From Clostridiales bacterium (GTDB lineage Bacteria > Bacillota > Sulfobacillia > Sulfobacillales > Sulfobacillaceae): a DNA stretch of 33,174 nucleotides. Positions 1-33,174 of the stretch are shown in pieces. Numbering within the stretch: position 1 is the stretch's first letter; the number at the start of each line of letters is the position of its first letter. The notes below the pieces were generated by a model. That model saw only the letters and a program-made list of their open reading frames with translations, was not told the DNA's origin and did not search any database. The position numbers were made by a program, and so were the translations under genes. The stretch lies in the NCBI GenBank assembly GCA_027365485.1, contig DAHXNH010000104.1, positions 1 to 33,174 on the forward strand, given 5' to 3'.

Positions 1-53
1 TATTAAGCACGCCGCCAGCGTTCGTCCTGAGCCAGGATCAAACTCTCCATTGC
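1..53 (-). rRNA. rrs: 16S ribosomal RNA, 5' end (partial)
   Basis: Read on the minus strand, positions 46 to 1 give the universal bacterial 16S start (AGAGTTTGATCCTGGCTCAG, then the ACGAACGCTGGCGGCGTGC block). The mature 5' end is placed at about 53 by analogy with E. coli numbering, where AGAGTTTGATC starts at nucleotide 8. Only about 53 nt are present; the rest lies beyond the left edge of the window. The gene points the same way as the upstream fumarase/aspartase gene. Confidence 0.97.
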
Positions 54-148
54 TCAGTCGCGCATGGGCTGGCCCATACGCCTTGATCGTGATATACAGT
101 GTTTCGATTCTGACGATGTAGTTTTCAAGGACCGGGTCGCATCAATCG
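54..148 (-). other. 16S rRNA leader region
   Basis: Transcribed leader between P2 and the mature 16S. It contains a short inverted repeat, ATGGGC-TG-GCCCAT (64-77), about 10 nt before the mature 5' end, and CCTTGAAAACT (read on the minus strand), a string common in Firmicutes pre-rRNA spacers. It probably takes part in processing; that is inference. Confidence 0.45.
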
Positions 149-177
149 ATTCTACTACCGACTTTTCTTCAAGTCAA
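149..177 (-). promoter_or_regulatory. rRNA promoter P2 (sigma-A type)
   Basis: On the minus strand there is a -35 box TTGACT (172-177), a 17-bp spacer and a -10 box TAGAAT (149-154). The predicted start is near 142, giving a leader of about 90 nt before the 16S. Spacing is ideal and the position directly upstream of 16S fits an rRNA operon promoter. No functional data; this is motif evidence only. Confidence 0.75.
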
Positions 178-219
178 GTCTCCTCGAATGACACTCACTC
201 TCTCGCGAGAGCAAGGAGT

Positions 220-248
220 ATCTTACCGCCTGCTGCGATAGCATACAA
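220..248 (-). promoter_or_regulatory. rRNA promoter P1 (sigma-A type)
   Basis: A second minus-strand promoter: -35 TTGTAT (243-248), 17-bp spacer, -10 TAAGAT (220-225). It lies 71 bp upstream of P2, the tandem arrangement usual for rRNA operons. A perfect palindrome CTCTCGCGAGAG (200-211) falls just inside its transcript and may form a hairpin. Confidence 0.6.
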
Positions 249-376
249 CACCCATTACGACCCGTTCTCTCGACTTTACCGTCACATTACGCTATATATC
301 TCTCATCATCTCCGATTTTCGACTATTTTTGCGTTGAGCAACCGTTCGCCTCCATTCCTCTGACTGCTGTTCTGGA

Positions 377-1771
377 TTACTCCATGGGGGTAATTCGATC
401 GAGGTCCAGCGCTTCGTCCAATTTAGCTTCATCTAATAGTCCACGCTCTCTTACCACCTCGCGCACACTCTTTCCCTCAGCGTAAGCTGCCTTGGCCACG
501 GCTGCCGCTTGGTCATACCCTATATAGGGATTGAGGGCGGTAGCCAACGCCGTATTCATTTCCACAAAACCAGTCACGCGTTCGACATCGGCGCTAAGTC
601 CAACAAGACCTCGTTCTCGAAAGGCACGAATCCCCTGCGCTAAAATGTGAATACTGTGCAAGAGATTGTACGCTGCTACGGGCATCATTACATTGAGCTC
701 AAGTTGGCCTGCAGCCACCGCCGACTGCACTGCAAGATCGTTGCCATAGACCTGAAAGCATATCATATTCATCATTTCCGCCATAACGGGGTTGACCTTT
801 CCTGGCATAATCGATGAACCCGGCTGCACTGGCGGCAAAGCCAATTCTGCTAAGCCTGTGCGTGGACCCGAACTCAACAATCGAATATCGTTAGCAATCT
901 TCCCCCAAGCCGTTGCGACACCGCGCAGCCATCCTGACGTTTCAAGCACGGCATCCATATTTTGAATAAACGTAAACATGTTATCGGGTTGCCGAAAGGA
1001 AAGGCCTGTCTTTTCGCGCACTCCTTCAATAGCCCGCTTGCGATATTCTGGGTGCGCGTTAATTCCCGTGCCGACCGCGTTTCCTCCGAGCCCTATCCCA
1101 TAAAGTCCGGCCAGGACCGAATCTAACTGACCGCGCCAATAAGCGATCGCCCCGGCCCAACCTCCGACTTCTTGCCCAAGGCGCATAGGCACCGCGTCTT
1201 GCAGGTGGGTGCGCCCGGATTTGACCACGGCCATCCACGCCTTCGCCTTGTCTTCCAACACCGTCTGAGCCAAGAGCAATTCGGGAGCCAAGTCGTGAAC
1301 CAACGCCTCCGCCGCAGCAATGTGAATCGCCACATGAATGGTATCGTTGGTCGATTGGGCCATGTTCACCTGATCGTTAGGGTGTACGAAATGACCGCTT
1401 GAGCCGTGTTTCCCCAAGATTTCATCCGCCCGGTGGGCAATAACCTCGTTAGCGTTCATGTTTTGGGACGTGCCGGCACCCGCCTGATAGACATCGACCA
1501 CGAACTGGCTGTCCCACTGACCTGCAATAACTTCATCGGCCGCCTGCATGATGGCATTGGCCACCTCCTCAGAAAGCGCGCTTACCTCTCGATTAGCCTT
1601 AGCCGCCGCCCATTTAATAATTCCTTGAGCGCGAATAAATCGTCGCGGCAACCGCAGTCCACTGATGGGAAAGTTCTCAATCGCACGCTGGGTCTGAGGC
1701 CCCCAATAGGCCGAACTCGGAACTTTAACTTCCCCTAACGAATCCTTACTCACCCGATACTCTTCACTCAT
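377..1771 (-). CDS. Class II fumarate hydratase / aspartate ammonia-lyase family enzyme
   Basis: 464 aa, full length for the fumarase/aspartase superfamily, whose members reversibly add water or ammonia to fumarate. The signature GSSIMPGKVNP is intact, as are GRTHLQDAVP and the HPNDQVN and QSTND segments. Several features lean towards aspartase: GAGTSQNMN instead of the GSGTQSNMN common in FumC, PVMAE after the signature, AGQLELNVM, and a C-terminal GKSVREVVRERGLL resembling E. coli AspA. Other positions (N-terminal WGPQTQRAIENF) are fumarase-like, so substrate is not settled. The start ATG at 1771 has GGGGAGA about 10 nt upstream. It is expressed towards the rRNA promoters, and no terminator is visible between its stop and P1. 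Family assignment is very secure; fumarase versus aspartase is open. Confidence 0.93.
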   Translation of the reverse strand: MSEEYRVSKDSLGEVKVPSSAYWGPQTQRAIENFPISGLRLPRRFIRAQGIIKWAAAKANREVSALSEEVANAIMQAADEVIAGQWDSQFVVDVYQAGAGTSQNMNANEVIAHRADEILGKHGSSGHFVHPNDQVNMAQSTNDTIHVAIHIAAAEALVHDLAPELLLAQTVLEDKAKAWMAVVKSGRTHLQDAVPMRLGQEVGGWAGAIAYWRGQLDSVLAGLYGIGLGGNAVGTGINAHPEYRKRAIEGVREKTGLSFRQPDNMFTFIQNMDAVLETSGWLRGVATAWGKIANDIRLLSSGPRTGLAELALPPVQPGSSIMPGKVNPVMAEMMNMICFQVYGNDLAVQSAVAAGQLELNVMMPVAAYNLLHSIHILAQGIRAFRERGLVGLSADVERVTGFVEMNTALATALNPYIGYDQAAAVAKAAYAEGKSVREVVRERGLLDEAKLDEALDLDRITPME

Positions 1772-2899
1772 ATCGATCGTCTCCCCAAGCCATTTTTCCT
1801 CGATGGGATGCGTCCTTGCCTTTTCAGCCCGGCCGCACTCTCACCGAATCAGTTGCCTCACCACTCATTGACCCTGTCCATCGCTCGTGTCAACTCGAGG
1901 CGAATCATTTAACATTCGCTTGTCCCGCTGGGACACACCAAGCGGTGAAACGCCCCGGTTGATTTTGGTTAAGTCGTCAACGTAATAACACGCCAGTCTC
2001 ATAAAATTATACGATAGAAAAACTCGGTTCAACGCCATTTCCAGCATAATCAGGCGTGTTGCGGTGAGAGTCCCCCGCACTTTTGATTCGACAGAATAAA
2101 AATCCGAGATTGGAGGTGAGCGATGAGAATGCCAGTCATATGGTTTCACATGGCGATTGACCTCGGACAACAAGGAGTTTTTTCGTAGGGGCTGGCTAAT
2201 TTTCGACCCCAACCGTGTTAGGCTTCTTCCAAACATCTGAATAAGGCTTTTGAGTAGATAAACCTGACCGGGCGTTCTTTGCGACGAAAAAACATACGCC
2301 CCTCTGAACTCCTCATCAAGAAGACCACGGCTTTTTCTGACTGGTTTGAGCTTCAGTTGGCATCGCGTCGAACACTCAACCAGGTCCGTGAAGCCTAAAA
2401 CCCCGCTGCCATAACGGAATCGCCGCTCGAGATCCGCCCATGGCAGGGCTCGAGGAACCGATCATCCAAAACACTCCCGATGCCTCTAATCGGTTCATAG
2501 AGATGAACTTAGCTGGGCCATGCTCCCTTCAATCCCCAGAGTCAGCGCTCAGTATCCGTGGCTCGAGAAAGATCCAGGCAAGACGTTCGCCGGACCCTCT
2601 TCGCAGCGCGCCAACACGCTCGTCATTTCAGGCCAAACGTCGAATTCGTACGGGCTTAATCTTTCCCCGTTGGCCGCGATCGGCCCGTAGAATGTTTTCC
2701 CAAAACCCGAGCCCTCAATATCTTGAGGCCAAGGAGTCCCTGAGCATTGCTAGACCGAGACGACGGCCCCGAAGGGCCGTGGCGTTTTATTCCTCTCGCG
2801 ATGGCAAAATCGATGAGGCATAGAGGGTGCGGCCCACTGACAGTCGATCTCCACCATGAAATCCGACGACGGTTTTCATCACGCATTTCATTCCCGTGA

Positions 2900-3435
2900 C
2901 CCAGTGATCCCTTTGGCTCACAACCCGACCCCGCCGCCAACTTAGACCTAATTGCTGCTCACCCGGTCCATATCGCCTGGCCCTATGGTCATAAACACAG
3001 GTTCTTTACGATCCCTGACGAAGCATCTAGAAAAACGTTGGAGTTTCTCCAATAAGAGTGTGAGATCGTAGCCTGCGTCTTTGATACCGGGCCCCATCCA
3101 CGACCACTGGATACAACCTCGCATCCGAAAACACCCTTCTTCCCGGGTTCCCTACCCAAGGACCCAAACTTTCCCCTCCACTGGGCAGCCCTCTTCCATA
3201 CCACTCAACCCGCTTTGGATATCAAACCGCTCGTCGACACGGTGGTGCTTTCTTAAAAGGACTAGCCTTCATCGCCCGCGCCGACAGCCAACTCGTCCGC
3301 AGCGATTTTGTGGCGATCTCTTCTTCACACGCATTTACCCGATCACCTAGACAAACCGCATCAGAATTTATTCGAGCTTTTTTCGACGAAGATGAAGGGT
3401 CATTCGAGTGCAAAGCCTGCTCGATGCTTCGTTAA
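2900..3435 (+). pseudogene. Possible decayed protein-coding remnant
   Basis: One plus-strand frame runs from 2900 to a stop at 3254-3256 with a single internal TAA (3053-3055), so 117 sense codons in all. A second frame, shifted by two, continues from 3259 to the stop at 3433 (58 codons). The translations look protein-like (for example GHKHRFFTIPDEASRKTLEF, then GLAFIARADSQLVRSDF), but I do not recognise the family. A dead transposase is one possibility. Chance open frames at this GC remain a real alternative. Confidence 0.25.
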
Positions 3436-28546: not shown

Positions 28547-28694
28547 TCATTTGAGAAAGAGCCCCAACCGACGCACGATTTGCTAGCAAAAAAACCCTGG
28601 CCGAAAACCCATTTCTTCCACTACTTTTCCAACCACAGGGCTCCCATCTGAGTTTGCTCCTCACCGAATGCGGCCGCTAGGTGGTGGATAAAGC

Positions 28695-28959
28695 GTGACG
28701 GTCGTTGTCGTTATGAATCCAGGGCGACCACTAGGAGCCGCCCAAGGACTATGCATAGCGCGAACTAAAGGCAACCACCTGCTCAAAGCGATCGCGCTTG
28801 GCTACGGCCTAATCCTTTCCCAAGCTTTAGAATCTTTCTTAAAACGCGCCGCCGGCTAACCTGGTGGATGACCTCCGCTGTCTCGAAAACGCCTTCCTCA
28901 GCCATGAGGCTCTGATGCACCGGACCCTCAAAAACTTTTCGGTCCATCGTCCAGTTTAA
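28695..28959 (+). pseudogene. Possible decayed coding remnant
   Basis: GTG 28695 opens a 54-codon frame (VTVVVVMNPGRPLGAAQGLC, later KAIALGYGLILSQALESFLK) that ends at 28857-28859. A one-base shift from 28861 continues LVDDLRCLENAFLSHEALMH to a stop at 28957. The protein-like character on both sides of the shift suggests a frameshifted gene. The family is unknown. Confidence 0.25.
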
Positions 28960-29091
28960 GGATAGGATTCCTCCTTTTCCAATGGGTGGACCCTATCACC
29001 GAGAACGAGAGATAGGCCAGGCCGAGAGCGGCGAGAACCCTCGGTCTGGCTTGATGAAATGCTGAATGATCCGTCACATCCCACCCAGGGA

Positions 29092-29352
29092 CTACGAGGC
29101 TGGGTGTTTCACGCGAAACTTCTGGCGCGTGGCTTCTCCTCCACGCAAGTGGCGTTCCGCCTTATTCACCTCCAAGATTTTCTTCACTTCGGTTGCCAGT
29201 TGCGCATTGATTTTCGGCAGACGTTCAGTCACATCCTTATGCACAGTACTTTTCGAAACGCCAAAGACTTTCGCGGTATCGCGAACGGTAGCACCACTTT
29301 TCAGGATATAGTTCCCGATGTCTACCACTCGCTGCCAGATGTGGTCTTTCAC
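29092..29352 (-). CDS. spoIIID: Sporulation transcription factor SpoIIID
   Basis: 86 aa from GTG 29352, which gives MKDHIWQRVVDIGNYILKSG, aligned with the B. subtilis start; a TTG nine codons earlier is less likely. AAAGGGG lies 8 nt upstream. The HTH (TVRDTAKVFGVSKSTVHKDV) and the hallmark ERLPKINAQLATEVKKILE and RHLRGGEATRQKF are all conserved. SpoIIID switches mother-cell gene expression after sigma-E. It lies downstream of the spoIIQ-like gene, as in B. subtilis neighbourhoods, but with its own promoter after a terminator. Confidence 0.96.
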   Translation of the reverse strand: MKDHIWQRVVDIGNYILKSGATVRDTAKVFGVSKSTVHKDVTERLPKINAQLATEVKKILEVNKAERHLRGGEATRQKFRVKHPAS

Positions 29353-29387
29353 CGCTCCGGCCCCTTTCTCCCCCCGCAATCTGGTTG

Positions 29388-29416
29388 AGTATATGGTTTA
29401 GGACACGCGAAAATGC
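29388..29416 (-). promoter_or_regulatory. Putative sigma-E promoter of spoIIID
   Basis: Minus-strand GCATTTT (29410-29416), 14-bp spacer, CATATACT (29388-29395). The -10 agrees with the sigma-E form CATAnnnT and the gene is sigma-E-dependent in B. subtilis. The -35 overlaps the foot of the preceding terminator. Confidence 0.5.
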
Positions 29417-29439
29417 CAGGGCTTAAAAGCCCTGGCATT
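29412..29439 (-). terminator. Terminator of the spoIIQ-like gene
   Basis: AATGCCAGGGCT (29412-29423), loop TAAA, AGCCCTGGCATT (29428-29439): a 12-bp perfect stem. On the minus strand it ends in TTTTCG. It lies 14 bp past the stop. Confidence 0.85.
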
Positions 29440-29453
29440 AACTTCGACGACCC

Positions 29454-30068
29454 TTACGACGATGGGTGGAGGTAGGCGACCGGATTTGAGGCTAAGCCTG
29501 CATGATACAATTGGAAGTCAACGTGGGAGCCTGCCTGATGAGAATAGAGGTCAGACGCCCCAACGGTTCCCACGGTGTCGCCTTGACGAATAGATTGGCC
29601 CACTCGCACCTCGGCTTTGGCCAAATGAGTGTAGGCTGTCTCAAACCGCTTCCCATCATTGACCACGACCTCGACTCCGGTTTGCGGGTCGGATTGTACG
29701 CGCTCTACCGTACCCGCCCACGCTGCCTTTACCGGGGTGCCTGCCTTTGCTGCAATCGTGAGTCCCGGGTTGTAATACCACTCATTTTGCGTCCCCGAAT
29801 ATTGCCATCCGAAGTCCGTTTCGATCCGACCATTGACCGGCATCATCAATGGCTTGGATGTGGGCGAAGCCACCGTCGAATGGCTTTTGATTCGGGGTAA
29901 ACGCCCCTTCGACCGGTGGACTTTTTTGGAGTGTCGGTGATGGAGCTCTGCCTTAACGCTGACCGCATGCCGTTCGCTGCGAATGGCTAGGGTCAATCCC
30001 GTGCCCACCACTAATATCCCTAGCACCCCAGCCAGTACCCGCCATAAGGTCCTTTGACCGTTACCCAT
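29454..30068 (-). CDS. spoIIQ: SpoIIQ-like M23-fold (LytM) sporulation protein, degenerate
   Basis: 204 aa from ATG 30068 (GGGAGG 4 nt upstream). One N-terminal membrane helix (about 9-28), a basic linker, then a LytM/M23 domain (about 75-200). Zn ligands are largely lost: the usual HxxxD reads N100-PGL-T104, and HxH reads H182-V-D184; H148 and H182 remain. B. subtilis SpoIIQ, a forespore membrane partner of SpoIIIAH, is also inactive, so a scaffold role fits. The context between ywmB and spoIIID supports SpoIIQ over a general M23 peptidase. SpoIIIAH is not in the window. Confidence 0.8.
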   Translation of the reverse strand: MGNGQRTLWRVLAGVLGILVVGTGLTLAIRSERHAVSVKAELHHRHSKKVHRSKGRLPRIKSHSTVASPTSKPLMMPVNGRIETDFGWQYSGTQNEWYYNPGLTIAAKAGTPVKAAWAGTVERVQSDPQTGVEVVVNDGKRFETAYTHLAKAEVRVGQSIRQGDTVGTVGASDLYSHQAGSHVDFQLYHAGLASNPVAYLHPSS

Positions 30069-30192
30069 ATGTCCTCCCGCTTCCTGTGAAGAATGTCCTA
30101 AGAGATTCAAAGCAGTCATGTTTCAACATGCTCAACCCTAGGTTGCCCACGAATCGCCCTTTCTATCCTTCCATTCCCATTTTTCCCAGATT

Positions 30193-32276: not shown

Positions 32277-32618
32277 TCATCCCATCTTCAGAGCTTCTTC
32301 TGTTTCTGGAAAAGCCGCGATGGGCAACGGGTTGGGGGGAACCGGGCAAAATTGACTTTCCTCCAAGTTTTCACCAAAAAATGCGGGTTTGAGGCACCGA
32401 AACGGGGGCTCGTCCAAAATTTCACCCCAATTATTTCCACGCAAAATCCGGGCGCCTAGAGCCGTGATGCGTTTAGCCCGAGGCAGACGGTCGAGCATCA
32501 TCTCCACAGCCAGAGGTCTGACCTGGGGGTGGTGGTATGGGGATACACGACATACAAACGTGGCCTGGACCGCCAACGGTAGAGCACCAACATCAGTTCG
32601 TTACCCATCTTTCGAGGG
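32277..32618 (-). pseudogene. Possible decayed coding remnant
   Basis: On the minus strand an ATG at 32618 begins GNELMLVLYRWRSRPRLYVV for 36 codons; a second frame nearby continues VRPLAVEMMLDRLPRAKRIT, then LGARILRGNNWGEILDE and onward. The change of frame around 32520 with protein-like text on both sides suggests a frameshifted gene. The family is not identified; a transposase is one guess. The remaining sequence from 32036 to 32717 shows no other gene. Confidence 0.25.
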
Positions 32619-32759
32619 TCAGAAGGGTATATTGGCCGAATTTGTAGCCACAGTGCGATAGTTTTCGCGTTATAGTTAGATTAATTTCCACACACGGAAA
32701 AGTTCTCTTGATATTGAGTGTTATCATTTGTTGAGTTTAGCTTTTTAGCGGGTAGCGAA

Positions 32760-32927
32760 ATGACGAGATTTCCAAGAGGTTCGGAGTGGCGGAAATGGGT
32801 CCTTCATATTCACTCTCCTGGAACAAAACTAAACGATGGTTATAAATGCAGGGATGTTCAATCGGAGCTTGACCTTTTTTGTCATATTCTCCACAACTCT
32901 GATGTGCAGGCATTTAGCTCGAGTTGA
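32760..32927 (+). pseudogene. Truncated N-terminus of a TrlF-type PHP/AAA ATPase
   Basis: A 55-codon frame from ATG 32760: MTRFPRGSEWRKWVLHIHSP, then GTKLNDGYKCRDVQSELDLF and HNSDVQAF before the stop. GSEWRKWDLHxHTPG-(T/S)-KLND is the N-terminal hallmark of TrlF-family proteins, which join a PHP nuclease domain to an AAA ATPase (well over 800 aa) and are linked to phage defence. Here the Asp of DLHxH is Val, and the frame stops just where the next PHP strand (usually ...GVTDYF) should follow. It is thus a stub or the edge of a deletion or insertion. Surrounding DNA (32650-32960) is richer in A/T than neighbours, which suggests transfer. Confidence 0.7.
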
Positions 32928-33174
32928 GAAACGCTTTTTTTCTGTAATTACAAATGACGACATCCATCGGTCAAGGAAGACCGATGCTGACCTATCCTGG
33001 CCCGGGCGGACGGGATCGCTGGTCCCTACCCAATGCATGTAGGGAACCCTGTTACGGGTTATTTGCGGCGGCGACGGATCATTCTCGTAGACGCGGGCTG
33101 AAGGAGGCAGGTTGCTGGCGTTGGCTTTGCGCCTGCGGTTACAAACGTTGCAGCAGCTCATACCGCCGAAGTGG
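32928..33174. other. Unassigned right-end sequence
   Basis: Beyond the TrlF stub, GC content rises again. A plus-strand frame open to the window edge (from about 32980, MLTYPGPGGRDRWSLPNACR) and a minus-strand frame exist, but neither has a recognisable motif. A mobile element junction is possible, since the TrlF reading is cut here. Confidence 0.3.

What the first reader, a model, noticed from the sequence alone, without database searches (positions are those of the whole stretch)
32760..32927. Stub of a TrlF-type PHP/AAA phage-defence gene
The 55-residue frame carries the very distinctive TrlF N-terminus (RGSEWRKW-LHIH-PGTKLND) but lacks the rest of a protein normally many hundred residues long. 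The PHP metal motif is already altered (Asp to Val). Local A/T richness and the abrupt end suggest a horizontally acquired defence locus that was cut by deletion or insertion. The missing part or the rest of a defence island may lie right of the window.
Basis: partly seen in the sequence, partly recalled or inferred. Interest (0 to 1): 0.65.

Follow-up and report, generated by a model that had tools for sequence, protein, structure and literature searches.

The report
Dead remnant of a TrlF gene
This is the first ~50 codons of a known family of probable phage-defence genes, cut off where it runs into the leftover end of a small mobile repeat; the same dead stub is in a sister genome and the rest of the gene was found in neither, so it is an ordinary gene relic.

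Summary
The 55-codon frame at 32760-32927 matches the first 46 of 944 positions of NCBIfam TrlF (E 1.7e-8) and is 55-62% identical to the N-termini of intact ~930-aa TrlF proteins. The truncation is real, not an effect of the contig end. The window is the whole of contig C11. Its last 141 bases equal the end of contig C364, and a contig of a same-genus MAG (JAMCVM010000071.1) spans the joint and carries the same stub. To the right there is no TrlF remainder and no defence island, but a gene-poor, repeat-bearing stretch, then an Sfp-type phosphopantetheinyl transferase and an NRPS gene. The stub ends where TrlF sequence meets a 58-nt right end of a ~260-bp repeat with terminal inverted repeats that is interspersed in related genomes. 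The stop codon and the last few codons therefore belong to the repeat. The Asp-to-Val change is real, but the sister copy still has Asp, so Val arose after the truncation. Best reading: a decayed, horizontally acquired trlF pseudogene, cut by a deletion joining trlF to a mobile-repeat remnant. Interest low.

The parts
32578..32759 (+). A/T-rich DNA upstream of the stub, probably the remaining 5' flank of the acquired gene; no sigma-70-like promoter found
   Evidence: GC 0.40-0.43; promoter scan found none; no homologue other than the sister contig
32760..32911 (+). trlF remnant: codons 1 to about 50 of a ~930-codon gene (MTRFPRGSEWRKWVLHIHSPGTKLNDGYKCRDVQSELDLFCHILHNSDVQ...)
   Evidence: NF045780 E 1.7e-8, profile 1-46/944; tblastn to intact TrlF
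32909..32966 (+). truncated right end (58 nt) of a ~260-bp interspersed repeat with terminal inverted repeats; supplies the stop codon 32925-32927
   Evidence: 83% identity to G022:C123 and 87% over 46 nt to G025:C80; family of copies in related genomes with a shared right terminus; inverted repeats
32976..33104 (.). a second interspersed repeat of the bacterial family, unidentified
   Evidence: 70-83% identity copies in related genomes; no Rfam match
32291..32577 (.). a third interspersed repeat, several copies in the own and the sister genome, bounding the A/T-rich segment on the left
   Evidence: 73-84% copies in G000 and G001
33034..33174 (.). 141-nt contig end, identical to the end of contig C364, through which the locus continues
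   Evidence: spanned by G001:C45

Best explanation
A pseudogene relic. A trlF gene (PHP-like N-terminus plus AAA/SMC-like ATPase, a probable defence gene) was acquired horizontally by an ancestor of two related Bacillota. A deletion (or an insertion followed by a deletion) then removed about 880 codons and joined codon ~50 to the last 58 nt of a ~260-bp mobile repeat, whose own sequence gives the premature stop. Since then the remnant has drifted like its flanks; in this lineage it also lost the conserved Asp before LHIH. It makes no functional TrlF. Shown: the TrlF identity, the truncation, the repeat at the break, the continuation to the right, the shared presence in two genomes. Inferred: horizontal origin, the deletion as the mechanism, lack of function, the defence role of the parent gene.
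For: TrlF match only to profile 1-46 of 944; no other TrlF part in the genome. The sister contig has the same stub and the same break at 97-99% identity and spans the contig joint. The sequence after about 32909 is the right end of a repeat found at 20 places in 10 of 34 family genomes, counting these two stubs, with imperfect inverted repeats at its ends. Extending TrlF past the break is no better than shuffled DNA for two of three queries and marginal for the third (48 of 1000 shuffles). Two replacement and one silent change among 55 codons between the copies, one of them loss of the conserved Asp. Lower GC than the surroundings.
Against: The frame is still open up to the repeat in both genomes, so a short peptide could be made; three differences are too few for a selection test. 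The exact breakpoint is uncertain by several bases (about 32905-32915). The left end of the repeat is lost, so insertion and deletion cannot be ordered. Both genomes are metagenome assemblies.
Confidence: 0.88

Rival explanations
1. Assembly artefact: an intact trlF gene was broken by a misassembly or by the contig end.
For: The stub lies 247 bases from a contig end in a 440-contig MAG, next to repeats, where misjoins are common.
Against: A contig of a separate MAG with 2-4% divergence has the same junction in mid-contig, and no TrlF remainder was found anywhere in the own genome.
Confidence: 0.04
2. An intact or nearly intact gene interrupted only by a frameshift near 32920.
For: tblastn with one TrlF weakly extends past the stop with gaps.
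Against: The extension runs over stop codons and is reached by shuffled tails. The same 58 nt are the end of a dispersed repeat in other genomes. What follows are repeats and then a phosphopantetheinyl transferase and an NRPS gene.
Confidence: 0.02
3. The stub is a retained short protein (for example a regulator or decoy made of the TrlF N-terminus).
For: The frame is open in both genomes, with start codon and LHIH preserved.
Against: The conserved Asp is lost in one copy; no promoter-like site; no further genomes with the stub among those searched; the C-terminus is repeat sequence; most of the PHP-like part and all of the ATPase are missing.
Confidence: 0.05

Closest known systems
TrlF family AAA-like ATPase (NCBIfam NF045780)
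   Same: N-terminal ~50 residues, PRGSEWRKWDLHxHxPGTKLNDGY
   Different: About 95% of the protein is missing; 33.7 bits against the family cut-off of 350
Ppl anti-phage protein (NCBIfam NF042955, PADLOC Ppl)
   Same: Intact TrlF homologues resemble Ppl in the C-terminal ATPase part; Ppl is reviewed as a PHP exonuclease + NTPase defence protein (PMC12904381)
   Different: The stub itself has no Ppl match and no ATPase part

Membership tests
TrlF (NF045780) | TrlF N-terminal signature (profile start) | tested here: met
   E 1.7e-8, profile 1-46
TrlF (NF045780) | whole-protein score at or above the curated cut-off of 350 bits | tested here: not met
   33.7 bits
TrlF (NF045780) | AAA/SMC-like ATPase part | tested here: not met
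   absent in the window, C364 and G001:C45
TrlF (NF045780) | conserved Asp before LHxH | tested here: not met
   Val here; Asp in the sister copy and in the three intact homologues compared
Anti-phage defence gene | protects against phage | not testable with these tools
   no paper on TrlF found in the held library
Anti-phage defence gene | intact homologues lie beside defence genes | tested here: inconclusive
   HsdS, HsdR and an Mrr-type endonuclease near L041 TrlF; C5 methylase and Vsr near L039 TrlF; HsdM and HsdS next to Sulfitobacter TrlF. Suggestive, but only a handful of loci and no statistical test

The most novel reading that the evidence does not exclude
The stub is kept as a short expressed peptide, made of the TrlF N-terminus fused to a few codons from a mobile repeat, with a function of its own.
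Probability: 0.03. Interest if true: 0.4.

Novelty: already known. Interest (0 to 1): 0.1.

Why it matters
It shows that a TrlF-type gene was once present in this Bacillota lineage and was lost through a deletion at a mobile repeat, which is the usual turnover of defence genes. It should be annotated as a pseudogene and not counted as a defence system.

Tried and rejected
Continuation of TrlF in another frame past 32920: rejected. Remaining TrlF parts elsewhere in the genome: none; the other weak profile hits lie in separate open frames of their own and are of the size that control genomes also give. An RNA family for the repeats: no Rfam match. A transposase remnant right of the stub, guessed from the translated sequence RHGIEYGYVYVG: no Pfam match, so not claimed. 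An IS3-like assignment of the ~260-bp repeat, because one partial copy follows a transposase-like reading frame: not established, not claimed. Viral contigs: no relative. Phage records: one 45% match, in Microcystis phage Mwe-JY31, to a hypothetical protein. Literature on TrlF: none found in the held library. A first version of the shuffle test failed for a script error and was rerun.

Full report
Observation. The frame 32760-32927 encodes MTRFPRGSEWRKWVLHIHSPGTKLNDGYKCRDVQSELDLFCHILHNSDVQAFSSS. In NCBIfam it matches only NF045780, TrlF family AAA-like ATPase, E 1.7e-8, profile positions 1-46 of 944; Pfam and PADLOC give nothing for so short a piece. Among public genome contigs the nearest intact relatives are a 936-aa protein of an Aminicenantes MAG (62% over 52 aa) and TrlF proteins of Mycobacterium barrassiae and Demequina, all of which exceed the TrlF cut-off over the full length.

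The truncation is real. The window is the whole of contig C11 of a 4.9-Mb, 440-contig MAG. Its last 141 bases are identical to the end of contig C364, the only other match in the genome; an exact overlap of this kind is what an assembly-graph break leaves (inference). A same-genus MAG, JAMCVM010000071.1 (Bacillota bacterium FK_Sedi_B_Bin.94), has a contig that matches C11 from 20047 to the end (95-98% identity) and C364 over 2.5 kb (99.2%), and so spans the joint. It carries the same stub with the same end. Right of the stub come repeats, several hundred bases without a recognised gene, an Sfp-type 4'-phosphopantetheinyl transferase and an NRPS gene with adenylation, carrier and thioesterase domains. 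There is no TrlF part there, and none was found elsewhere in the genome.

What cut it. The 58 nt at 32909-32966 are not TrlF. They match, at 83-87%, sequences in two related genomes that turned out to be the right end of a ~260-bp repeat. Copies or fragments lie at 20 places in 10 of 34 genomes of the family, counting the two stubs. Aligned, the copies share a right terminus ending in ATATACA (the window has ACATCCA) and have imperfect terminal inverted repeats. The window holds only the last 58 nt. TrlF similarity ends where this piece begins, at about codon 50; the codons for the last few residues and the stop are repeat sequence. A weak gapped extension of one TrlF alignment past this point is matched or beaten by 48 of 1000 shuffled tails, and the other two TrlF queries gain nothing notable. 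The simplest history is a deletion that joined trlF to the inside of a copy of this repeat; the order of events cannot be read from one locus.

Decay after the cut. Between the two genomes the stub differs at three codons: Val/Asp at codon 14, a silent change at 27, Arg/Ser at 31. The sister copy keeps the Asp that the intact homologues have, so the Val is a later change in the window's lineage. The flanking DNA differs by a similar amount. Three changes cannot prove neutrality but fit it. From general knowledge, in PHP enzymes the two His of HxH are metal ligands and the preceding Asp usually is not; HxH is intact here.

Origin. The segment 32640-32970 has GC 0.40 against 0.55 for the window. 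The nearest intact homologues are in other phyla, while in 398 genomes sampled from the same phylum only one other hit was found, at 45%. Together these favour horizontal acquisition (inference). Intact homologues stand beside HsdR/HsdS and an Mrr-type endonuclease (Demequina), a C5 methylase and Vsr (Aminicenantes), or HsdM/HsdS and a recombinase gene on a plasmid (Sulfitobacter), which fits a defence role. They also resemble Ppl in the ATPase part, and Ppl is reviewed as a PHP exonuclease/NTPase anti-phage protein (PMC12904381). I found no paper that tests TrlF itself.

Verdict. An ordinary pseudogene of a known family. The expectation of a defence island to the right is refuted.

Noticed in passing
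window 28633-28966: 334 bases present here but absent at the corresponding place of the sister contig G001:C45; no other copy found in own or related genomes. Either an insertion here or a deletion there.
   Followed up: partly
window 32976-33104: Interspersed repeat found in several genomes of the family at 70-83% identity, no Rfam match; nature unknown.
   Followed up: partly
window 32291-32577: Another repeat with several copies in the own and the sister genome only.
   Followed up: no
L021:3453-3711 and loci L043-L062: A ~260-bp element with imperfect terminal inverted repeats (TGTAT...ATACA), MITE-like, dispersed in this Bacillota family; parent transposon not identified.
   Followed up: partly
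window 29092-30119: SpoIIID (29092-29379, over the family cut-off) and a SpoIIQ-like M23 peptidase (29454-30119), both on the minus strand: probably a spore-former.
   Followed up: no
L019 (C364) 2-3259: NRPS module with thioesterase followed by an Sfp-type phosphopantetheinyl transferase, linked to the right end of the window.
   Followed up: no
L066 (Microcystis phage Mwe-JY31) 3404-6109: A phage record carries a TrlF-like gene of about 900 codons annotated as hypothetical protein.
   Followed up: no
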